Assembly: GCF_945873075.1 (NCBI RefSeq)
Contig: NZ_CAMCBS010000015.1
Coordinates: 1 to 59,234, forward strand
Direction of reading: 5' to 3'
Length of the DNA stretch: 59,234 bases
Source: an uncultured Moraxella sp.
GTDB taxonomy: Bacteria > Pseudomonadota > Gammaproteobacteria > Pseudomonadales > Moraxellaceae
A program made the translations under genes and the position numbers. The first letter of the stretch is position 1. Each line of letters starts with the position of its first letter. The notes beneath the pieces are model-generated. The model saw only the letters and a list, made by a program, of their open reading frames with translations. It was not told where the DNA came from and ran no database searches. This document shows positions 8,850 to 53,945 of this stretch, one piece after another.

Positions 8850-9953
8850 TTATTCATCAAACAGGCGATACTGTCTGCGACCTTGATGCCAGTCGCTATC
8901 AAGATAGGCTTGATAAGCATGATAAAATAGCACATTAATCACCGCTGAAACAGGTAGCGCAATCAGCATGCCCACAAAGCCTAACATCGCAGCACCAGCA
9001 AGCACCGAGAAAATTACCCATAATGGCGACAGCCCAATCTTATTGCCAAGCAATAGGGGCTGTAGCACATAGCCTTCGAGTACTTGCCCCACCATAAACG
9101 CACCGACAATCAGTCCAAGCTGTAGCCAGTCAAAGCCAAATTGAAACACGCCAGCAATCAGCGCAGCAATGATACCGACGCCAAAGCCAAGATAAGGCAC
9201 AAAGCTTGCGATACCTGCCATAATCCCGATAATCAGACCAAGCTGTAAGCCAATCAGCTCAAGCTGTACTGCATAAATCGTGCCAAGTAGTAGCATAACC
9301 AGTAGCTGACCCTTAGCAAAGCTCATCAAGGCATCGTTACAGTCTTGGGCGATTTGTGTGACTTTGGCAGTGTAGGGCTTGGGAATGGCTGATTGCCAAG
9401 TGGCAAGACGCTTATCCCAACCAAGCAAAAAATAAAACGCAAGCACAGGCACCATCACCACAAGCCCAAAGCTGTTGGCAAAGTTCATCCCTGAGCTTAG
9501 GGCTTTTTTGATAAATCCTTGCGCATCAGCAAATTGATAGTTTTTTTGCAAAAATTCTAAAGCGGCATTGGATAGTACATTGGCATCAAGTGGCAATAAA
9601 TCGGCATTGGTATGCATCGAAATCCAAGGACGCACGACATCATTGTACCAAAGCACCGCAGCGGGCAGTGATTCCCACAGAATCTCAAGCTGTGCCCACA
9701 GTAGCGGTACAAGCCATACAAAAAACGCCACCGCAAGCACGGCACTACTGAGATACACTAGGCTAATCGCCAAAATGCGGGGCATAATACGGCTGACGGC
9801 ACTGACCAATGGATTCAAAAAATACGCCAAAATAAACGCCGCAACAAAAGGCGTGATGACTGATTTCATCAAAAATAGGGCGTACAACAAGATGCCAATG
9901 CCAGCCAAAATCAGTAATCTGCGAAAAAATGGGTCAATGCCAGTGCGATACAT
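8850..9953 (-). CDS. perM: AI-2E family (PerM-like) membrane permease
   Basis: 367 residues with eight or so hydrophobic segments: two pairs near the N-terminus, a central amphipathic stretch, then a cluster at about 205-345. The family signature lies around 'GIMAGIASFVPYLGFGVGIIAAL' and 'GYVLQPLLLGNKIGLSPLWVIFSVLAG'. The AI-2E exporter superfamily includes PerM, TqsA and Na+/H+ antiporter members, so substrate cannot be assigned. It is transcribed away from purM and toward hda. Confidence 0.88.
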   Translation of the reverse strand: MYRTGIDPFFRRLLILAGIGILLYALFLMKSVITPFVAAFILAYFLNPLVSAVSRIMPRILAISLVYLSSAVLAVAFFVWLVPLLWAQLEILWESLPAAVLWYNDVVRPWISMHTNADLLPLDANVLSNAALEFLQKNYQFADAQGFIKKALSSGMNFANSFGLVVMVPVLAFYFLLGWDKRLATWQSAIPKPYTAKVTQIAQDCNDALMSFAKGQLLVMLLLGTIYAVQLELIGLQLGLIIGIMAGIASFVPYLGFGVGIIAALIAGVFQFGFDWLQLGLIVGAFMVGQVLEGYVLQPLLLGNKIGLSPLWVIFSVLAGAAMLGFVGMLIALPVSAVINVLFYHAYQAYLDSDWHQGRRQYRLFDE

Positions 9954-41334: not shown

Positions 41335-41616
41335 ATCAACTGTATCAATTTTCATCAATGCAATTATTTAACCGATATTATCAATTTACATAATAAAAAT
41401 TCAAAAAATACAAGATTTTGATACAAATTTTGTCCAATAAATTCACTTTTGGAATTTGGCAAAATGGGTGAAGTGTGTTACAGTGTGGCAAGTTTTATCA
41501 GAAAAATGCGTGATTTTATTGGCAAAACTTAGCAATAACGCCTGCAATGATGGGTGTCAATCGTCCCAAGATTGCACCGCATTTTTCAAAGCCATCAGTT
41601 GAGTACGGAGCCCTTT
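41335..41616. other. Intergenic region before the Gcr-type gene
   Basis: No gene seen. AT-rich; a TTGATA near 41419 is a possible -35 with no clear -10. In-frame GTG 41554 would give a longer product, but no ribosome site is near it. Confidence 0.5.
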
Positions 41617-43884
41617 GTGACTTTATCAACCAGCCAAGATTTACAACATATCCTGCAACATATCGCCATGCTACGGGAATTGCCTGAGCCTGAGTCGCTC
41701 AAGCGATTGATTGATGCATTGCGTGTGGATAGTGATGATGTGGATGGGGCGAACGCCAAGATTGATGAGCTCATTGAGTTATTGCAAGCCAATCCCGAAT
41801 ACGGTCAGGCGCTGGCGGCATTTATCCTAAGACTAATTACCAAATATCGCCAAATTCCTTTATATACCGATGCAGGGATTGCGTCGGATGAGACTTTTTT
41901 TGGTAGTGTGACCAAGCTGATTGGGCATCGCTTTTTGCCATTATTGCCCAACGAAGAGCTGGTGGTCGAGCTTGCCAATTATCTATTTGACCAAAAAAAT
42001 GACTACAAATGGATTGCCAATATCGATGCGGACAAATGGGATACGCTCGTTGATTTGGTGCAAGTTAGTGCTGATGATTTAAGCTTGGTTGCGCAGATTA
42101 AGAATAATATTCTAAATGCGATTGTTATCCTATCTTATCGTGTCAGTGGCATGGGTCTGCACGCAGAGTTAATGGAGTTTTATCCAGAGCTACTCAATCA
42201 CTCGGCTGCCTTTGTTGCCCAAAACCAAGAAGCCATCTTGTTCGTCAATCAGTACCGCCAAGCACATAAGCTGGATGAGATGACCGATGAGATGCCCGAA
42301 GTGGACATTGACCCTGCACCATTATTGGTGATGGTGGAACAGTGCCAAGACATCGTGACTAGCGTGCGTAAGCGGGTGTATAAGACGGGCATTTCGATTC
42401 GCATGACGAACCTGCTTGTACGTCTGGAGCAAAGTTTGCATCGGATGCAGGTGCTGGTGGATTTGGTGACGGACAAAGATGCCAACCGTGACAAATCCAT
42501 CGTGGAGCTGGCATCATCTGTGGTGCGTACTGCCAATACTCGCTATCGCTTTGGCTCATTGATTGAGAGTAATACCAAGCTATTATCACGCAAAGTCACT
42601 GAGAATGCCAGCCGTGTCGGTGAGAACTACATCAGTACCGACCCAAGCGGCTACAAAAAAATGTACCGCAAAGCTGCCATCGGTGGCTTATTTATCGGCT
42701 TTATGGCGACGCTCAAGATTTTGGGCTCATATCTTGTGCTTGCGCCGATTGGCAAGGCGTTTATTAATAGCATGATTTATGGCTTGGGCTTTGTGTTCAT
42801 TCATATCGCCAAAGGTACGGTGGCGACCAAACAGCCTGCGATGACAGCGGCGGCGATTGCATCGACGATTTCAGAATCATCGGGCAAAAAAACCCAACAA
42901 ATGACCAAGCTTGCCGAGCTGATTGTGGATATTTTGCGGACGCAGTTTGTGGCGATTTTGGGGAATATTTCGGTGGCGATGCCGGTGGCGTTTTTGATTG
43001 CCGTCAGTTGGAAATACTTAAATGGCGCGCCGATGATTGATGGTAAGATGGCAGCACATCTACTGCATGACCTAGACCCAATCCGCTCGCTATCATTGCC
43101 ACACGCTGCCATTGCTGGGGTGTTCTTGTTCGTGTCGGGGCTGATTTCGGGCTATTATGACAATTTGGCTGCTTATAATAAAATCGGTGAGCGTATCCGT
43201 CGCCATCCATTGCTCAAAAAATTCTTATCCCCTGATTGGCAAAATAAGCTAGGCACATTTGTAGAAGCGAACCTTGGCGCTATCATGGGTAACTTTATCT
43301 TTGGTTGCTTTCTTGGCAGCACGGCGACGGTCGGTTATATGCTTGGCTTGCCGCTGGATATCCGCCACATTGCCTTTGCATCAGCGAACTTTATTCATGG
43401 TATTTTCCATCTATCGCCACAGGATTTGACTTGGCAGGTGATTAGCTTATCATTTGTGGGTGTGCTACTGATTGGTATGGTCAACTTGATGGTGAGTTTT
43501 TCTTTGGCATTGATGGTGGCACTGCGTTCAAAAGGGGTGAAATTCTTTGAATGGAAACGCCTAAACAGCCTAGTGTTTGACCATTTCAAAAGCCGTCCTT
43601 TGGACTTTGTATGGCCACGCAAAGAAGCGGTCAAATATGCACAGATTAACAGTGATGGCGAGATGATTCATGATGAAGTCAAAGACAAAGAAACTCGCTT
43701 TTTCTCTGATGCCATCGTCCGTCGTCTGGGCTTTAAGCCAAAAGATGCTAAGGAAATCTCGCAAGACATCAGCGAAGCGACTTTTGAGCCGGTGAGTGAT
43801 GAATATTTGGCACAGGCAGATAATGGCGAAGAGCAACATTCATCCCTGCCAAAGCCTGATAATAAGCCAAAACTGCCTAAATAA
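41617..43884 (+). CDS. Gcr-type 'site-specific recombinase' family membrane protein
   Basis: About 755 residues from GTG 41617, chosen for GGAG seven bases upstream; GTG 41554 (21 more codons) is possible, and a TGA blocks anything earlier. The N-terminal half is helical and soluble (Glu/Asp-rich). The C-terminal half has several membrane segments ('FIGFMATLKILGSYLVLAPIGKAFINSM', 'LIGMVNLMVSFSLALMVAL'). The family is annotated as a site-specific recombinase after a gonococcal protein, but the membrane segments argue against a DNA enzyme. True function unknown. Confidence 0.85.
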   Translation: MTLSTSQDLQHILQHIAMLRELPEPESLKRLIDALRVDSDDVDGANAKIDELIELLQANPEYGQALAAFILRLITKYRQIPLYTDAGIASDETFFGSVTKLIGHRFLPLLPNEELVVELANYLFDQKNDYKWIANIDADKWDTLVDLVQVSADDLSLVAQIKNNILNAIVILSYRVSGMGLHAELMEFYPELLNHSAAFVAQNQEAILFVNQYRQAHKLDEMTDEMPEVDIDPAPLLVMVEQCQDIVTSVRKRVYKTGISIRMTNLLVRLEQSLHRMQVLVDLVTDKDANRDKSIVELASSVVRTANTRYRFGSLIESNTKLLSRKVTENASRVGENYISTDPSGYKKMYRKAAIGGLFIGFMATLKILGSYLVLAPIGKAFINSMIYGLGFVFIHIAKGTVATKQPAMTAAAIASTISESSGKKTQQMTKLAELIVDILRTQFVAILGNISVAMPVAFLIAVSWKYLNGAPMIDGKMAAHLLHDLDPIRSLSLPHAAIAGVFLFVSGLISGYYDNLAAYNKIGERIRRHPLLKKFLSPDWQNKLGTFVEANLGAIMGNFIFGCFLGSTATVGYMLGLPLDIRHIAFASANFIHGIFHLSPQDLTWQVISLSFVGVLLIGMVNLMVSFSLALMVALRSKGVKFFEWKRLNSLVFDHFKSRPLDFVWPRKEAVKYAQINSDGEMIHDEVKDKETRFFSDAIVRRLGFKPKDAKEISQDISEATFEPVSDEYLAQADNGEEQHSSLPKPDNKPKLPK

Positions 43885-44073: not shown

Positions 44074-45636
44074 ATGGGCTTGCCGTTTGCAAAGCTATTT
44101 TTAACAAAATCCCTAAGTAGCGTGCTTGGGGTGTCCGTGCTGTCTATGCTGTTATCAGGCTGTATGACCAATGAAGAAAAACAAAACATTCAGCACCTAC
44201 AAGACACAACAGCGATGGTGTGGCAAAAATGCAAAACCGATTATCCTGATTGGTTCGCTGATAAGCCTGATAATAAGCTGTACTGCACTACCTTATCCGT
44301 ACCGCTAAACCAATACGCACCGTCCGCTGAGCGTGTGTCATTGGCACTAAGTGTGCTGCCTGCCACCCAAAAAGCCATTGGCAATCTCATCATCATCGCA
44401 GGCGGGCCGGGTGAACATAGCCTTGATATGTCGCTTGAATGGCTAGATGCCAACGCGCCACAACTTCAACAACTACGCAAGCAATACAACATTATCGGCT
44501 ATGCACCGCGTGGCGTTGCACCATCGACACCTGCCATCAGCTGTGGCGATACGCCAATTGATGAATTGCCAAGCGACACCGAGCCAAAAGATGTGATGGA
44601 TTTGTGCGAAAAACATACAGGCAAAGCCGTGCTTGCACACATCAGTAGTCGTGATGCGGTGCTTGACCTTGAGCGGATACGAGTGGCATTAGGTGGCAAT
44701 CAGCTCAATGCCATTGCCTATTCGTATGGGACAAAGGTGCTGATTGCTTATGCTGAACAATTCCCCACTCATCTGCGTGCGGGTGTGCTTGATGGCGTGG
44801 TGGATGTGACGCAGACATCAGCGCAGTGGCGAGCCAAGCAAGAGCTTGGGATGCAAGATGCCTTTGAGCGATTTGTGGCAGACTGCTTAATGCATTATGA
44901 TTGTGTGTTTGAAAGCTTGACACCGGACAAAGACAGCATCAATTATCAGACAGGGGCAATGCTTGAGCCTGTACCAAGTTTTGCTGAGCAATTTCACCAA
45001 ATACTCAAGCATATCGACAACAAAAAACTCACCGACCGCTACGAGCAAGTCATCACCGCCGATTCGGTGCTGTCTGTGTTTAGCGAACTGTTGTATTATC
45101 AAGAAACTTGGAAAGATGCAAGGTGGATGCTAGATGGACTTAGTCAAGGCAAAACCGCATTTTATAATGAATTTGCCAAGCCAAAACAGCAAGCTTTTGA
45201 AGAAAATGCACGCCTAGTGGCAATCAACTGCGCCGATTCTGCGACACCTTGGCATGAACGCAACAAGTCAGCCCAAAGCGACGAGCGGGCGCAAATCGAT
45301 GCCTTGACGAGCTTTGATGATTATCCGTCAAATTCACAATCGCATTTTGCTGATTTGTGCTTTTATTGGCCTTATGATGGCACAGATAGCTATGCGATGC
45401 CAAATAAAGGCGCAGGCACACCACAGCTATTATTCGTGGCACAGACCCGTGACCCAGCCACCCCTTATGACAATGCTGTCAAGATGGCGCAAGTCTTTGG
45501 CGCACCGCTCATCACTCGCAATGCCAATGGACATACACTTGCACTACAAGGGCTAAGCCAATGCGTGGATAGTGCAGTTGCAGAGTATTTGAGCGAGCCA
45601 AACAAGCCGATGGCGTCGCAAACTTGTCAGGACTAA
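44074..45636 (+). CDS. Alpha/beta-hydrolase lipoprotein, tripeptidyl aminopeptidase-like
   Basis: 520 residues. Lipobox LLSGC with C30. 'IIIAGGPGEHS' is the oxyanion-side turn; the nucleophile elbow is A-Y-S-Y-G with Ser about 215, where the first Gly of GxSxG is replaced by Ala. Asp near 460 (TRDPATPYDNA) and His near 486 (NGHTLALQG) complete the triad, the last two in a TAP-like C-terminal domain. Cys-rich for this window. An exported peptidase or esterase is likely; substrate unknown. AAGGAA precedes the ATG. It lies upstream of the mcr gene but with a separate 338-base gap. Confidence 0.85.
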   Translation: MGLPFAKLFLTKSLSSVLGVSVLSMLLSGCMTNEEKQNIQHLQDTTAMVWQKCKTDYPDWFADKPDNKLYCTTLSVPLNQYAPSAERVSLALSVLPATQKAIGNLIIIAGGPGEHSLDMSLEWLDANAPQLQQLRKQYNIIGYAPRGVAPSTPAISCGDTPIDELPSDTEPKDVMDLCEKHTGKAVLAHISSRDAVLDLERIRVALGGNQLNAIAYSYGTKVLIAYAEQFPTHLRAGVLDGVVDVTQTSAQWRAKQELGMQDAFERFVADCLMHYDCVFESLTPDKDSINYQTGAMLEPVPSFAEQFHQILKHIDNKKLTDRYEQVITADSVLSVFSELLYYQETWKDARWMLDGLSQGKTAFYNEFAKPKQQAFEENARLVAINCADSATPWHERNKSAQSDERAQIDALTSFDDYPSNSQSHFADLCFYWPYDGTDSYAMPNKGAGTPQLLFVAQTRDPATPYDNAVKMAQVFGAPLITRNANGHTLALQGLSQCVDSAVAEYLSEPNKPMASQTCQD

Positions 45637-45974
45637 TCAAGTTACCGATGTTGATAGGTTGGGATTGATTGATGGTATCAATGCATAAAGCATGGCTTGG
45701 ATACAGTGTTTGCATTGCTAGCCATCATCGTGTATCGTGCAGATAATGTTAATAACAAAAATATACACGCAAATGAAAATTGCTAATAAATAAGAGTATT
45801 AATCAATTAATAAATAAGTGCTATGCTTGATTTTTATTAGGTTTATCAGACTTGTTACGCCAAGATTGCAAATTTGTACTATTTTATTTATCTGCACAAT
45901 ATATCTAGATTCTCCAACGACATTGAAGTATAATCGCCAACTTGTATTGTATATGGCATTTGTGGGTAATCTTT
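45637..45974. other. AT-rich region upstream of the mcr gene
   Basis: No gene or insertion sequence seen. A TATAAT at 45929-45934 with a weak TAGATT at 45906-45911 is the likely promoter, 41 bases before the mcr start. GGGTAA (45964-45969) may serve for ribosome binding. There are no inverted terminal repeats or target duplications. Confidence 0.6.
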
Positions 45975-47591
45975 ATGACATCACATCACTCTTGGTATCG
46001 CTACTCCATCAATCCTTTTGTACTGATGGGTTTGGTGGCGTTATTTTTGGCGGCAACAGCGAACCTGACATTTTTTGAAAAAGCGATGGCGGTCTATCCT
46101 GTATCGGATAACTTAGGCTTTATCATCTCAATGGCGGTTGCACTGATGGGTGCTATGCTATTGATTGTCGTTCTGTTTTCCTATCGTTATGTGCTCAAGC
46201 CTGTGCTGATTTTATTACTTATCATGGGTGCGGTGACGAGCTATTTTACCGATACTTATGGCACGGTCTATGATACCACCATGCTCCAAAATGCCATGCA
46301 AACCGACCAAGCCGAGTCTAAGGACTTGATGAATTTGGCGTTTTTTGTGCGGATTATCGGGCTTGGTGTGTTGCCAAGTGTGTTGGTCGCAGTTGCCAAA
46401 GTCAATTATCCAACATGGGGCAAAAGCCTGATTCAGCGTGCGATGACGTGGGGTGTCAGCCTTGTGCTGTTGCTTGTGCCGATTGGGTTATTTAGCAGTC
46501 AGTACGCGAGTTTCTTTCGGGTGCATAAGCCAGTGCGTTTTTATATTAACCCGATTACGCCGATTTATTCGGTGGGCAAGCTTGCCAGTATCGAGTACAA
46601 AAAAGCCACTGCGCCAAAAGACACCATCTATCATGCCAAAGATGCCGTGCAGACCACCAAGCCGAGCGAGCGTAAGCCACGCCTAGTGGTGTTCGTCGTC
46701 GGTGAGACGGCTCGTGCTGACCATGTGCAGTTCAATGGCTATGACCGTGAGACTTTCCCACAGCTTGCCAAGGTTGATAGCTTGGCGAATTTTAGCCAAG
46801 TGACATCGTGTGGCACATCGACGGCGTATTCTGTGCCGTGTATGTTCAGCTATTTGGGTCAAGATGACTATGATGTCGATACCGCCAAATACCAAGAAAA
46901 TGTGCTAGATACGCTTGACCGCTTGGGCGTGGGTATCTTGTGGCGTGATAATAATTCAGACTCAAAAGGCGTGATGGATAAGCTACCTGCCACGCAGTAT
47001 TTTGATTATAAATCAGCGACTAACAACACCATCTGTAACACCAACCCTTATAATGAATGTCGTGATGTCGGTATGCTTGTTGGGCTAGATGACTATGTCA
47101 GCGCCAATAATGGCAAAGATATGCTCATCATGCTACACCAAATGGGCAATCATGGGCCGGCGTACTTTAAGCGTTATGATGAGCAATTTGCCAAATTCAC
47201 CCCTGTGTGCGAAGGCAACGAGCTTGCCAAATGCGAACATCAATCGCTCATCAATGCCTATGATAATGCACTGCTTGCCACCGATGATTTTATCGCCAAA
47301 AGTATCGATTGGCTAAAAACACATGAAGCAAACTACGATGTCGCCATGCTCTATGTCAGCGACCACGGCGAGAGCTTGGGCGAAAATGGTGTCTATTTGC
47401 ATGGTATGCCAAATGCCTTTGCACCAAAAGAACAGCGTGCCGTACCTGCGTTTTTTTGGTCAAATAATACAACATTTAAGCCAACTGCCAGCGATACTGC
47501 ATTGACCCATGATGCGATTACGCCAACACTGCTTAAGCTGTTTGATGTCACAGCGGGCAAGGTCAAAGACCGCACGGCATTTATCCAGTAA
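45975..47591 (+). CDS. mcr: MCR-type lipid A phosphoethanolamine transferase
   Basis: 538 residues from ATG 45975 (MTSHHSWYRYSINPF), the length I recall for MCR-2; an in-frame start 11 codons earlier is not supported. Five N-terminal membrane segments (about 14-180) are followed by a periplasmic alkaline-phosphatase-like domain. Zinc and catalytic residues E244, T283, H393, D463, H464 and H476 are all present and take the numbers used for MCR-2. It adds phosphoethanolamine to lipid A and is the basis of colistin resistance for this family. By recall it matches MCR-2/MCR-6 more closely than MCR-1; I did not compute identity. Codon use looks like the neighbours. Confidence 0.95.
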   Translation: MTSHHSWYRYSINPFVLMGLVALFLAATANLTFFEKAMAVYPVSDNLGFIISMAVALMGAMLLIVVLFSYRYVLKPVLILLLIMGAVTSYFTDTYGTVYDTTMLQNAMQTDQAESKDLMNLAFFVRIIGLGVLPSVLVAVAKVNYPTWGKSLIQRAMTWGVSLVLLLVPIGLFSSQYASFFRVHKPVRFYINPITPIYSVGKLASIEYKKATAPKDTIYHAKDAVQTTKPSERKPRLVVFVVGETARADHVQFNGYDRETFPQLAKVDSLANFSQVTSCGTSTAYSVPCMFSYLGQDDYDVDTAKYQENVLDTLDRLGVGILWRDNNSDSKGVMDKLPATQYFDYKSATNNTICNTNPYNECRDVGMLVGLDDYVSANNGKDMLIMLHQMGNHGPAYFKRYDEQFAKFTPVCEGNELAKCEHQSLINAYDNALLATDDFIAKSIDWLKTHEANYDVAMLYVSDHGESLGENGVYLHGMPNAFAPKEQRAVPAFFWSNNTTFKPTASDTALTHDAITPTLLKLFDVTAGKVKDRTAFIQ

Positions 47592-47617
47592 GTTATCATC
47601 ATAACCCAATCTCAAGC

Positions 47618-47644
47618 CATCACACTACGGTATCGTGTGATGGT
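47618..47644. other. Hairpin just after the mcr gene
   Basis: CCATCACAC (47618-47626) pairs perfectly with GTGTGATGG (47636-47644). There is no T-run, so it is a weak terminator at best, or an RNA-stabilising hairpin. Confidence 0.45.
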
Positions 47645-47694
47645 AAAAGGCGGATTTGCAAGATATTTTGCAATGTTTTTTAGGAATGTATCAG

Positions 47695-47784
47695 ATGACC
47701 AATCAGCGTCGATGGATTGAATGTGCGATGGCGCTTATGCTTGCAGGCGTGGCGATGATGTGGCGTAGGCGATTTGTGCGATGA
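47695..47784 (+). CDS. Short ORF downstream of mcr, possible remnant
   Basis: 29 codons (MTNQRRWIECAMALMLAGVAM and a basic end) with TAGGA upstream. It has one hydrophobic stretch and a basic C-terminus. Mobile mcr genes are known to be followed by a PAP2-type membrane phosphatase ORF; this may be a decayed form of it, but the match is not evident. It could also be a chance frame. Confidence 0.3.
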   Translation: MTNQRRWIECAMALMLAGVAMMWRRRFVR

Positions 47785-47861
47785 TGGCGATGGTGTTTTT
47801 TAAGAAAAGTTGAATTAACTGGGCTTGACTAGCTTATTTGGTTGGCGGATTTTTGCTATGC

Positions 47862-48164
47862 TTAGATTTTTGTTTTTTGCATGACAAAGAGCATCTGACT
47901 TGCCAAAGTCGCCGTCGCAGTCACGAATAAGCCAATCCTCACCAAGATATAGCCTACGGTAAATAGCTTGCCAAGTGTGGTCTGTGGCGAAAAATCACCA
48001 TAACCCACCGTCGCCACAGTAATCACCGAAAAATAAAACGCATCCACCCAAGACCATTTTTCAATAAAATGATAAAACACAGTCGCAAGCCCAATTTGTG
48101 AAAAGCTTAGGCTCATCAAGATTTTGACCTTTGTGTCGGCAAACGCAAGGCGAATGGCATACAT
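47862..48164 (-). CDS. Two-TM potassium-channel-like protein
   Basis: 100 residues from ATG 48164. Two membrane helices flank a pore loop with the selectivity signature TVGYGD (52-57). This is the Ion_trans_2 (KcsA-like) unit, without a regulatory RCK domain. Likely a tetrameric potassium channel. It lies 38 bases downstream of azlD on the same strand, so it may be cotranscribed. Confidence 0.85.
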   Translation of the reverse strand: MYAIRLAFADTKVKILMSLSFSQIGLATVFYHFIEKWSWVDAFYFSVITVATVGYGDFSPQTTLGKLFTVGYILVRIGLFVTATATLASQMLFVMQKTKI

Positions 48165-48202
48165 CAAATCCCGTATAGGATTGAGCGTATCATCATTTTG
48201 TT

Positions 48203-48562
48203 TCAGTAGAATAACTTATCAATCAGGCTGCCAATCAAAAATCCTGCCATGCCGATAATCACGCTCATGCCGGTATTGATTTTCTTGGCGGTGGCAAGTA
48301 CGGTGGCAATAATACCGCAAATGGTGGCTATCATTGGGCTGTGCTCGGTCGGCGCCTCAAAAAACGGCAACATCAAGACCATCGTCATTGCAACGATAAT
48401 CGCACCACCTAAAGGGGCGAGTGGTGAATTTTCGGCGGTAAAAAATCGAATGATGGGCGAATTATCAGGTAACAAAAACGGCAACGCACGAGACAAAGCG
48501 GTCAAAATCGCCATCGCCACCACCGCAATCACCAATGTCGAAAAATTAGCTTGGCTAAACAT
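48203..48562 (-). CDS. azlD: Branched-chain amino acid exporter, small subunit AzlD
   Basis: 119 residues with three to four membrane segments. The start 'LTALSRALPFLLPDNSPIIRFF' and 'APLGGAIIVAMTMVLML' are typical of AzlD. It works with AzlC (nine bases upstream) as the two-subunit LIV-E exporter. Substrate is inferred from the family. Confidence 0.88.
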   Translation of the reverse strand: MFSQANFSTLVIAVVAMAILTALSRALPFLLPDNSPIIRFFTAENSPLAPLGGAIIVAMTMVLMLPFFEAPTEHSPMIATICGIIATVLATAKKINTGMSVIIGMAGFLIGSLIDKLFY

Positions 48563-48571
48563 GGCTACCCC

Positions 48572-49264
48572 TTATCGTCTGATGCGATTGATGACTAATT
48601 GCACAAGCACACCCATAAAGCCTGCCACCAATAGGGCGATTTCGCCATGTCCATAGCGTGTGCAGATGATGGCAATCACGGCTGCGACGATAAGGGCAAT
48701 CCGAAAGCGTGGCTCACTGATAAAAGCGTGCGTCGAGAGCGACACAAACAACGCCACAAACGCAAAATTCATCACCGCACTCATCGTCGGATAATCAGCA
48801 AGCGCCTGACCGCCGACAATCCCCACTATCGTGCCGCCCCACCATGACACCCATGAGACGACAGCCAACCCAATCAGCCATGGCTTTTGATTGTCAATGT
48901 CTTTGAGTTTTGCCATTGCGGTGGCGAACACTTCATCGGTGATGAGTGGCGCGACCCAAATCATGCCATCACTGGATTTAAGATGGCGTTTCATCAGTGG
49001 CGCATACAGTAGATGCCGTGAGTCGAGCAGGGCGCACAGACCGACGACCGCCGTGACACTTGCGCCACTCATGATGGATGCAAATAGTAGGAACTGACTT
49101 GCCCCCGCATAAATAAACAGGCTCATCGCCACAATCACCCAAGTGGGAAATCCTGCCGCTGTCGTCGCCATACCAAAAGCAATCGCCACAGGGATATAGC
49201 CCAGTGCGATAGGTAGGGCGGCTTGACAGCCTTGAAGTAGGGCTTGGTGATTAGACTGGCTCAT
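48572..49264 (-). CDS. azlC: Branched-chain amino acid exporter, large subunit AzlC
   Basis: 230 residues with six to seven membrane segments. 'ALPIALGYIPVAIAFGMATTAAGFPTWVIVAMSLFIYAGASQF' and 'DSRHLLYAPLM' are AzlC signatures. Forms the exporter with AzlD. The gene faces away from mesX; between them lies the region with the mesX leader. Confidence 0.9.
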   Translation of the reverse strand: MSQSNHQALLQGCQAALPIALGYIPVAIAFGMATTAAGFPTWVIVAMSLFIYAGASQFLLFASIMSGASVTAVVGLCALLDSRHLLYAPLMKRHLKSSDGMIWVAPLITDEVFATAMAKLKDIDNQKPWLIGLAVVSWVSWWGGTIVGIVGGQALADYPTMSAVMNFAFVALFVSLSTHAFISEPRFRIALIVAAVIAIICTRYGHGEIALLVAGFMGVLVQLVINRIRR

Positions 49265-52217: not shown

Positions 52218-53945
52218 TTACATCTTCTCAACGGTCTTAATGCCAAGCAAATCAAGACCTTGCTTAAGTGTCTTGGCGGTGAGATTGGCAAGCAATAGAC
52301 GACTGGTCTTGGTCGGCTCATCTGCCGACAGGATTGGACAGGCTTCATAAAAGCCTGAGAACGCCCCTGCCAATTCAAACAGATATTGGCAAAGTAGATG
52401 TGGCAGACCGTCTTTGGCGACGGTGAGTAGCACTTCTTCAAACTGCAATAGTTTCACCGCCAAAGCACGCTCTTTGTCATCGCTGATGCTGATTTGACCT
52501 GTCAGCGTATCACCATCGACACCTGCTTTGGCAAAAATCGAGCGAATACGGGTGTAGGCATATTGCATATACGGAGCGGTATTGCCTTCGAACGACAGCA
52601 TATTATCCCAATCAAAGACATAATCGGTGTTGCGATTTTTTGACAAATCGGCATATTTGACCGCACCGATGGCGACCGCATCGATGACTGCTTGTTTTTC
52701 GGCATCGGTCAAATCGGGGTTTTTGTCATTGATGAGTACAGTGGCACGCTCGATGGCTTCGTCCAATAGGTCGTTGAGCTTGACCGTACCGCCTGTACGA
52801 GTCTTGAATGGCTTACCATCTTTGCCCAGCATCATCCCAAAGGTGAAATGCTCAAGGCTAAATGTCTCGGGCACAAAGCCTGCCTTGCGGGTAATCGTCC
52901 AAGCCTGTGCCATGTGCTGAGCTTGGCGAGCATCGGTAAATACCAACGCACGGTCGCCGTGCAGGGTCTCATAGCGGTATTTGGCAGCGGCGATATCGGT
53001 GGTGGTGTATAGGTAGCCGCCGTCCTTTTTTTGGATAATGACGCCCATCGGCTCGCCTTCTTTGTTTTTAAATTCATCCAAAAATACCACGACTGCGCCA
53101 TCATCTTCGACCGCAAGCCCTTTGTCTTTGAGTGCTTGTACCACGACAGGTAGCATTGGGTTATATAGACTCTCGCCCATGACATCATCAGGGGTCAAGG
53201 TGACATTCATGCGCTCATAAGTGGCTTGGCACTGCGTCATGGTGATATCGACAAGCTTGCGCCACATCTCAAGGCAATACTCATCACCGCTTTGGAGTTT
53301 GACGACATAATTGCGAGATTTCTCGGCAAAAGCTTCATCATTATCATAATTTAATTTAGCTTGACGATAAAACTCTTCGATGTCGGATAAATCCATATCG
53401 GTGGCGTTTTCGTTTTGCATCTTTTCAAGATAGGCAATCAGCATACCAAACTGCGTACCCCAGTCGCCGACATGGTTGGCACGGATGACGGTATTACCTA
53501 GAAACTCAAGCGTACGCACGACACTATCACCGATGATGGTGGAACGCAGATGCCCAACATGCATTTCTTTGGCGACATTCGGGGATGAATAATCGACCAC
53601 CACACGCTGAGCTTGGTCGGCATTCACGCCCAATTTAGCATCGCTATTGGCAGTGCTGACACTATTTTCTAGCCATTGATTATTTAAGAAAATATTGATA
53701 AAACCTGCGCCAGCGATTTCAACTTTACTGGCGATATCGCTGATATCAAGCACATCGATAACATTTTGGGCAAATTCACGGGGATTTTTGCCCAGTTTTT
53801 TGGCAGCGCCCATGATGCCATTGGCTTGATAATCGCCAAATTGTGGCTTGCCTGACTGACGCACGAGCGCTTGGACATCACTGTCTGCACCTGCATTTAT
53901 CATGGCTTGTTTGATTTTGTCATTTAAAAGCTGTTGAATATTCAT
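52218..53945 (-). CDS. argS: Arginyl-tRNA synthetase
   Basis: 575 residues, normal length. The N-terminal additional domain (1-110) precedes the class I core. The ATP-binding HIGH motif appears as HVGH (129-132, in [10 protein letters not shown]). The DALR anticodon-binding domain forms the C-terminus, ending KTVEKM. It charges tRNA-Arg. A terminator follows. The upstream 157-base gap separates it from nth. Confidence 0.96.

What the first reader, a model, noticed from the sequence alone, without database searches (positions are those of the whole stretch)
45975..47591. Chromosomal mcr gene of the MCR-2/MCR-6 lineage without insertion sequences
The protein has the MCR length (538) and all MCR zinc/catalytic residues at MCR-2 numbering (E244, T283, H393, D463, H464, H476). 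It sits between a housekeeping hydrolase and a potassium-channel gene with no transposase, inverted repeat or target duplication nearby, and its base and codon use look like the neighbours. Moraxella is the proposed source of mobile mcr-1/mcr-2. This window may show the ancestral chromosomal setting, which helps tell which DNA moved with the gene.
Basis: partly seen in the sequence, partly recalled or inferred. Interest (0 to 1): 0.93.

Follow-up and report, generated by a model that had tools for sequence, protein, structure and literature searches.

The report
Chromosomal home locus of mcr-2
This chromosome, likely that of Moraxella pluranimalium, carries mcr-2 at the same place where a related Moraxella carries mcr-1, so the two colistin-resistance genes known from plasmids are likely two inherited versions of one resident gene that insertion sequences are inferred to have carried off to E. 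coli and Klebsiella.

Summary
The gene is real and is MCR-2, not MCR-6: 538 aa, 8 differences from plasmid MCR-2.1, above NCBI's MCR-2 cut-off and below those for MCR-6 and MCR-1. A resident mcr-2 in Moraxella pluranimalium is already published (mcr-2.2; the window is probably that genome, inferred). Four results I did not find in the papers searched. So this genome is a cousin of the donor, not the donor. (3) ISEc69, which flanks mcr-2.1, has 13 full-length copies (97% identical) in G071, so it looks like a Moraxella insertion sequence. (4) mcr-2.1 and mcr-2.3 differ in unit ends, in flanking elements and by dS 0.17, which points to two captures. Colistin resistance of this strain and the captures themselves are inferred.

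The parts
45975..47591 (+). mcr-2 (MCR-2 family phosphoethanolamine--lipid A transferase, 538 aa)
   Evidence: NCBIfam NF012159 1284.9 bits against cut-off 1200; 98.5% aa to MCR-2.1, 98.1% to MCR-2.3
45803..45974 (+). upstream DNA that is also in the mobile units: from 45803 in the mcr-2.3 unit, from 45883 in the mcr-2.1 unit
   Evidence: 95.5-96.3% nt identity over the matching pieces, ends mapped
45883..45890 (+). uninterrupted TTTATTTA, the 8 bases next to the upstream ISEc69 copy in the mcr-2.1 unit (inferred insertion target)
   Evidence: ISEc69 duplicates 8-bp AT-rich targets (PMC7835479 passages)
47592..47764 (+). downstream DNA shared with the mcr-2.1 unit; shared with the mcr-2.3 unit to 47664-47669
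47695..47815 (+). pap2 relic: first 23 codons, then a jump to the last codons of pap2; the middle of the gene is deleted
   Evidence: 5' part aligned with the mcr-2.1 pap2 fragment, 3' part (47756-47815) with the end of G071 pap2; 1 of 1000 shuffles reached the score of the 3' part
41554..43884 (+). ssr, PF10136 'site-specific recombinase' protein, ancestral left neighbour (inferred)
   Evidence: orthologue next to the mcr-1-like gene in G071
44074..45636 (+). alpha/beta-hydrolase (TAP-like) between ssr and mcr, inferred lineage-specific insertion
   Evidence: absent from the G071 locus; nearest in genus 41%; nearest protein found 94%, source without a name, next 43%
47862..48167 (-). small ion-channel gene (PF07885) between the pap2 relic and azlD
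   Evidence: nearest match in another genus genome 36%
48203..48562 (-). azlD, ancestral right neighbour (inferred)
   Evidence: 82% aa in G071
48572..49264 (-). azlC, ancestral right neighbour (inferred)
   Evidence: 90% aa in G071

Best explanation
The window holds a chromosomal mcr-2 gene at the same locus (ssr - mcr - azlD - azlC) where a related Moraxella carries mcr-1, and it was likely inherited there since before the two species split rather than brought in recently. The protein is predicted to be an inner-membrane enzyme with a periplasmic zinc domain that takes phosphoethanolamine from phosphatidylethanolamine through Thr283 and puts it on lipid A, which would lower the negative charge that colistin binds (function inferred from MCR-1/MCR-2, not tested for this strain). 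The old unit was likely mcr followed by pap2; in this lineage a hydrolase gene was likely inserted upstream, most of pap2 was deleted, and an ion-channel gene came to lie downstream. Close relatives that still had pap2 likely supplied mcr-2.1: ISEc69, an insertion sequence that is multicopy in a related Moraxella, is inferred to have bracketed it there, and a different element brackets mcr-2.3.
For: Family: MCR-2 cut-off met, MCR-6 and MCR-1 not; clade of window + MCR-2.1 + MCR-2.3 with support 100/99. Orthologous locus: 12 neighbour genes in the same order around mcr in G071. Divergence: mcr pS 0.572 against 0.400-0.623 (mean 0.555) in those 12. Kept by selection: dN/dS 0.03-0.12 over the pairs compared. 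Old mcr-pap2 pair: pap2 directly after the gene, same direction, in G071 and in the 4 g7 genomes examined, which were picked for carrying the closest homologues. pap2 relic here and 79 codons of pap2 in the mcr-2.1 unit. ISEc69: 13 full-length copies, 96.8-97.3% nt, 12 of 13 with exact 8-bp duplications, in G071; 93% relic of 88 bp in this genome. Two captures: different ends and flanking elements, dS 0.169 between mcr-2.1 and mcr-2.3.
Against: pS near 0.57 (dS about 1) is close to saturation, so an exchange between equally distant Moraxella lineages would look the same. Only 2 of 22 genus genomes carry the gene at this level; G036 and G097 have only 36-39% matches and 18 have none. The ssr/azlDC junction was not seen in the others, so at a deeper level the locus could be an acquisition. 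One genome per species was seen. The DNA between the hydrolase and mcr does not align significantly with the G071 intergenic DNA. No intact ISEc69 transposase was found in this genome (a strict end pattern also found none), and no chromosome with ISEc69 next to mcr-2 was seen. 2 of the 13 G071 copies have a stop in the transposase. No phenotype was measured.
Confidence: 0.84

Rival explanations
1. This strain, or its immediate lineage, is the direct donor of the plasmid gene mcr-2.1 (the strict progenitor reading).
For: 95.5% nt identity across the gene and into both flanks, no IS found; M. pluranimalium is the published origin of MCR-2 (PMC7782503 table passage; PMC9780603 passages).
Against: The mcr-2.1 unit holds pap2 codons 24-79 that are deleted here; window to mcr-2.1 dS 0.187, as large as mcr-2.1 to mcr-2.3 (0.169); no intact ISEc69 transposase found in this genome.
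Confidence: 0.08
2. mcr-2 came back: a mobile mcr-2 unit entered this chromosome from a plasmid and lost its insertion sequences.
For: A protein identical to MCR-1.1 is encoded on the chromosome of Actinobacillus sp. GY-402, so chromosomal acquisition of mcr can happen (inferred, context not examined).
Against: Same position as the mcr-1-like gene in G071; divergence like that of the neighbours; a relic of the 3' end of pap2, which neither of the two mobile mcr-2 units read here contains; no ISEc69 match, transposase match or inverted repeat at the unit ends.
Confidence: 0.03
3. At a deeper level mcr-pap2 is itself an old acquisition: it entered the common ancestor of this species and G071 at the ssr/azlDC rearrangement junction and was inherited afterwards.
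For: 20 of 22 genus genomes lack a close homologue; the pap2 family was found in 1 of 22; ssr is followed by other genes in G067 and G086; the azlDC regions read in G086, G036, G097 and G109 hold no ssr or mcr.
Against: Multiple losses would give the same pattern; the tree does not firmly place the MCR-1/2/6 clade inside another genus. This rival is compatible with inheritance since the split.
Confidence: 0.45
4. It is an ordinary chromosomal EptA with no special link to mobile mcr.
For: It is chromosomal and without IS; MCR and EptA are one enzyme superfamily.
Against: MCR-2 model 1284.9 bits against EptA models 433.4 (cut-off 660) and 278.5 (cut-off 561); 98.5% identity to plasmid MCR-2.1.
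Confidence: 0.01

Closest known systems
mcr-2.2, chromosomal in Moraxella pluranimalium 248-01T / CCUG 54913 (Poirel 2017, not opened; seen as cited in PMC9780603, PMC7782503 and PMC9462459)
   Different: In the passages I saw, nothing on the internal pap2 deletion, on orthology with the mcr-1 locus, or on derived neighbours. The label mcr-2.2 was also used for the allele now called mcr-6.1 (PMC9462459 passages).
   Same: Same locus: ssr upstream, azlD-azlC downstream; no ISEc69 copy among the 13 lies within the stretch read.
   Different: Intact pap2 follows mcr; no hydrolase and no channel gene; protein 83.1% identical; 13 ISEc69 copies elsewhere in the chromosome.
ISEc69-mcr-2.1-ISEc69 composite transposon (Tn7052) on IncX4 plasmids
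   Same: 95.5% nt identical from 45883 to 47764.
   Different: Flanked by ISEc69; holds 79 codons of pap2, cut by ISEc69; TAAATAAA duplication outside.
mcr-2.3 unit of K. pneumoniae plasmid p90CM2-MCR-253k
   Same: 95.6-96.3% nt identical over 45803-45910 and 45902-47664.
   Different: Flanked by two 1110-bp direct repeats with a different, transposase-like ORF; ISSpu2 inserted upstream; ends before pap2.
mcr-6.1 of Moraxella sp. MSG47-C17 (P0002; the allele name is linked by strain name and by 87.9% identity to MCR-2.1)
   Same: Moraxella relative, same clade.
   Different: 88.3% identical; the window fails the MCR-6 cut-off.

Membership tests
MCR-2 (NCBIfam NF012159) | Score above the curated family cut-off | tested here: met
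   1284.9 against 1200 bits
MCR-2 (NCBIfam NF012159) | Zinc and catalytic residues of MCR (E244, T283, K331, H393, D463, H464, E466, H476) | tested here: met
   the eight active sites in MCR-1 numbering from PMC10228737 passages, shifted by two
MCR-2 (NCBIfam NF012159) | Enzyme adds phosphoethanolamine to lipid A and raises colistin MIC | not testable with these tools
   needs the bench; MCR-2 and MCR-1 have solved structures (5mx9, 6sut, 9nww)
MCR-2 (NCBIfam NF012159) | Carried on a mobile unit (a property of the plasmid alleles; the published chromosomal allele mcr-2.2 shows that the allele name does not need it) | tested here: not met
   no IS match or inverted repeat found at the locus
MCR-6 (NCBIfam NF033670) | Score above the curated family cut-off | tested here: not met
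   1156.3 against 1235 bits
MCR-1 (NCBIfam NF000465) | Score above the curated family cut-off | tested here: not met
   1053.2 against 1100 bits
EptA equivalogs (NF008619, NF007160) | Score above the curated cut-off | tested here: not met
   433.4 against 660 and 278.5 against 561 bits
Recent-origin locus of a mobile resistance gene (features as tabulated in PMC7782503 and worded in PMC10039890, passages) | At least 95% identity to the mobile gene, shared flanks, mobilising IS absent at the locus | tested here: met
   95.8% gene, 95.5% with flanks, no IS found
Recent-origin locus of a mobile resistance gene (features as tabulated in PMC7782503 and worded in PMC10039890, passages) | Gene widespread in the species | not testable with these tools
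   one genome per species held
mcr-pap2 unit | Intact pap2 directly downstream of mcr | tested here: not met
   only a relic at 47695-47815; no match to G071 pap2 in the genome at E<=0.001
ISEc69 (copies in G071) | Full-length 714-bp element with 8-bp target duplication | tested here: met
   13 copies, 96.8-97.3% over 714 bp; 12 of 13 with exact 8-bp duplications; 2 of 13 with one stop in the transposase

The most novel reading that the evidence does not exclude
mcr-1 and mcr-2 are species-level versions of one and the same Moraxella chromosomal locus, which has been launched onto plasmids at least three times by different insertion sequences (ISApl1 for mcr-1, the Moraxella-native ISEc69 for mcr-2.1, an undescribed element for mcr-2.3), so the first step of mcr-2 mobilisation took place inside Moraxella with Moraxella's own insertion sequence.
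Probability: 0.62. Interest if true: 0.72.

Novelty: already known. Interest (0 to 1): 0.5.

Why it matters
Where and how colistin-resistance genes first became mobile is an open question. [quoted passage not shown] bovoculi (PMC5424208 passages). If ISEc69 is at home in Moraxella, the gene and the element that took it away can come from one genus, and the test is simple: screen Moraxella isolates for ISEc69 next to mcr-2. A shared locus for mcr-1 and mcr-2 also says which DNA is native (ssr, pap2, azlDC) and which came later.

Tried and rejected
Rejected readings: MCR-6 and ordinary EptA (family cut-offs); direct donor (pap2 deletion and dS); return of a mobile gene.

Led nowhere or weak: the single genome-contig scan returned one locus only, Actinobacillus sp. 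GY-402 with a protein identical to MCR-1.1; records near the window's genome may be left out there. The first tree (77 rows) had three rows translated from the wrong strand and an unfinished search; it was dropped and rebuilt with 34 rows, 20 of them from the 63 proteins P0004-P0066 used, chosen by hand to spread over the list. The upstream intergenic DNA of G071 gave only short matches (best E 0.03) to either side of the hydrolase, so the insertion point of the hydrolase is unresolved. The 3' half of the pap2 relic is short and rests on one alignment (1 of 1000 shuffles as good) plus its position. The class-wide ISEc69 DNA control (369 genomes, 14 with any match including this one, none full-length) is a thin draw that scored few candidates per genome; G071 is not among its matches, so it was evidently not in the draw. 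Two of the 17 genus ssr regions end soon after ssr at a contig end (G106, G100), so their next gene is unseen. Only two mobile mcr-2 alleles (2.1, 2.3) were compared; 2.4-2.8 were not. The hydrolase protein search gave no named close relative.

Literature limits: nine paper searches (listings). Passages were opened in 14 papers and the outline with abstract in one more (PMC7559476). Of 11 held papers that name ISEc69 I saw passages in 8, not in PMC10890735, PMC11117986 and PMC8461470. The AbuOun and Stosic papers are not held; the Poirel 2017 and Partridge papers were not looked up. Most subscription journals are missing from the library, so 'not found in print' is limited to this.

Full report
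What is there. Window 45975-47591 (+) encodes a 538-aa protein with Pfam EptA_B_N and Sulfatase domains. It scores 1284.9 bits on NCBI's MCR-2 model (cut-off 1200) and misses the cut-offs of MCR-6 (1156.3 of 1235), MCR-1 (1053.2 of 1100) and two EptA models. Identities: MCR-2.1 98.5% (8 differences), MCR-2.3 98.1% (10), the MCR-6.1-type protein P0002 88.3%, G071 83.1%, MCR-1.1 81.6%. The catalytic residues checked are all present. It is the only such match in its genome (1 match; 2,087,468 bases, 60 contigs, 93.6% complete). Solved structures exist for MCR-2 and MCR-1, so I predicted no fold.

What is already in print. PMC9780603 (passages) says that mcr-2.2 lies on the chromosome of M. pluranimalium 248-01T / CCUG 54913 and was proposed as progenitor of mcr-2.1. 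PMC7782503 (table passage) lists MCR-2, M. pluranimalium, 96%, IS1595 absent. PMC9462459 (passages) gives 99% aa to MCR-2 and 82% to MCR-1 for that allele; it also shows that the label mcr-2.2 was used for what is now mcr-6.1. PMC10285318 (passages) already notes that some pap2 genes near mcr-2 show truncation, without saying which in the passages seen. The core of the finding is therefore not new.

The locus is shared with mcr-1. In G071 the same gene order surrounds an MCR-1-like gene (97.4% to MCR-1.1): purU, acdA, acdB, ssr, mcr, pap2, azlD, azlC, a gene labelled D1852, metE, a flavin gene, argS, nth, lonB (apart from ssr, mcr, pap2, azlD and azlC these names are my own labels and come from no call). 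G071 has one contig of 2,336,058 bases, exactly the chromosome length given for Moraxella sp. FZFQ2102, carrier of mcr-1.35 with polymyxin B MIC 8 (PMC10228737 table passage). That paper already reports ssr upstream and pap2 downstream of mcr-1 in Moraxella. In the nine searches and the passages named in Tried and rejected I found no statement that mcr-2 sits at the same place. For 12 syntenic neighbours the proportion of synonymous differences is 0.400-0.623 (mean 0.555), for mcr 0.572; dS is about 1, so the test is blunt. In the 22 genus genomes, mcr at this level occurs in 2 (G036 and G097 have 36-39% matches, 18 none), the pap2 family in 1, ssr in 19. Of the regions read (19 round ssr, 17 of them from this genus, two cut soon after ssr; 5 round azlC, G071's among them), only this genome and G071 join ssr to azlDC. 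In G067 and G086 ssr is followed by another block of similar genes. So the position is older than the split of the two species; whether it is older than that is open.

The hydrolase (44074-45636) and the channel gene (47862-48167) are missing from the G071 locus. The hydrolase's best genus match is 41%; its nearest protein is 94% identical from a source without a name, the next 43%. The channel's best match in another genus genome is 36%. Between mcr and the channel gene lies a pap2 relic: MTNQRRWIECAMALMLAGVAMMW, 20 of 23 residues as in the mcr-2.1 unit's pap2 fragment, then DNA (47756-47815) that aligns with about the last 68 bases of G071 pap2. One of 1000 shuffles reached the score of the second half (42; highest shuffle 48). 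No match to G071 pap2 was found in the genome at E<=0.001. In the 4 g7 genomes examined, chosen because they hold the closest homologues, pap2 follows the mcr-like gene in the same direction; in the 4 g9 genomes examined it is divergent and adjacent in 3 and about 8 kb away in 1. In print mcr-6.1 is said both to lack a partner gene (PMC10285318 passages) and to have pap2 downstream (PMC9462459 passages). With mcr-1 in E. coli, co-expressed pap2 gave the highest resistance but was not needed (PMC7559476 abstract and section titles), so its loss here is of interest and its effect unknown.

Which DNA moved. The mcr-2.1 unit matches 45883-47764 at 95.5% (1884 columns, 2 gaps) and then goes on into pap2 up to codon 79, where ISEc69 cuts it. 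Its first 8 bases, TTTATTTA, stand uninterrupted in the window at 45883-45890; the outer duplication on the plasmid is TAAATAAA. The mcr-2.3 unit matches 45803-45910 and 45902-47664, with ISSpu2 between the pieces, and is bracketed by 1110-bp direct repeats 99.8% identical, seen in 1 of 72,556 plasmid records. mcr-2.1 and mcr-2.3 differ by dS 0.169, much as either differs from the window (0.187, 0.136). Different ends, different elements and this divergence point to two captures from two donors, neither being this genome. Alleles 2.4 to 2.8 were not compared.

ISEc69 at home in Moraxella. Outside Moraxella I saw ISEc69 in 5 of 72,556 plasmid records, all E. coli, and in 5 of 5,426 E. coli genomes. 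In G071 13 copies cover all 714 bases at 96.8-97.3%, and 12 of 13 have an exact 8-bp duplication; 2 of the 13 have one stop in the transposase, and the copy compared differs by 4 residues. A degraded copy at 92.5% lies in G025, and an 88-bp relic at 93% in the window's own genome at G000:C21:28695-28782. A class-wide draw of 369 genomes gave no full-length copy. PMC5424208 knew a 75% match in M. bovoculi (passages), and PMC10039890 concluded that most origin species lack the mobilising IS, while warning of few genomes for some (abstract and passages). PMC10228737 does not use the terms 'insertion sequence', 'ISEc69' or 'IS1595'. That ISEc69 captured mcr-2 inside Moraxella remains inference: no chromosome with ISEc69 next to mcr-2 was seen.

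How it works. From established knowledge of the family (MCR/EptA), the enzyme is predicted to move phosphoethanolamine from phosphatidylethanolamine to lipid A by a Thr283 intermediate at a zinc site. dN/dS of 0.03-0.12 between window, plasmid alleles and G071 suggests that the protein is kept under selection. Activity in this strain was not tested.

Verdict. Observation confirmed; interpretation right in kind, wrong on the neighbours and on direct descent. The gene is known; the shared locus, the internal pap2 deletion, the home of ISEc69 and the two captures are the parts that I did not find in print within the searches named above.

Noticed in passing
L005 8001-9623 (NZ_CP062137.1, Actinobacillus sp. 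GY-402 chromosome): A chromosomal gene whose protein is identical to MCR-1.1; context not examined.
   Followed up: no
L083 9161-9187 (minus strand): The 27-base 'IRR2' that PMC5424208 proposed as an ISApl1 relic after mcr-1 is present letter for letter in the G071 chromosome as the end of pap2 (9162-9896, minus) plus one base.
   Followed up: yes
L208 6008-6721 (NZ_CP122916.1, E. coli ETEC1706 IncHI2 plasmid): ISEc69 without mcr-2 nearby: within 6 kb on either side no part of the mcr-2 unit was found; the record has a second copy outside that stretch, and the ETEC4090 chromosome has two.
   Followed up: partly
L002 4891-6000 and 9018-10127: 1110-bp directly repeated element round mcr-2.3 with a 312-aa ORF without Pfam match, annotated 'hypothetical protein'; 54-57% full-length relatives occur in g9 genomes, in several copies in some.
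   Followed up: partly
window 52218-53945: argS (my label) of this genus differs in kind from that of g7 and g9: 69-92% identity in 17 other genus genomes, but only 32-39% partial matches in G097, G109 and the 8 g7/g9 genomes, and none in G052 and G100.
   Followed up: no
window 47862-48167: A 101-aa ion-channel protein with a TVGYGD filter and no close relative among the other 21 genus genomes.
   Followed up: no
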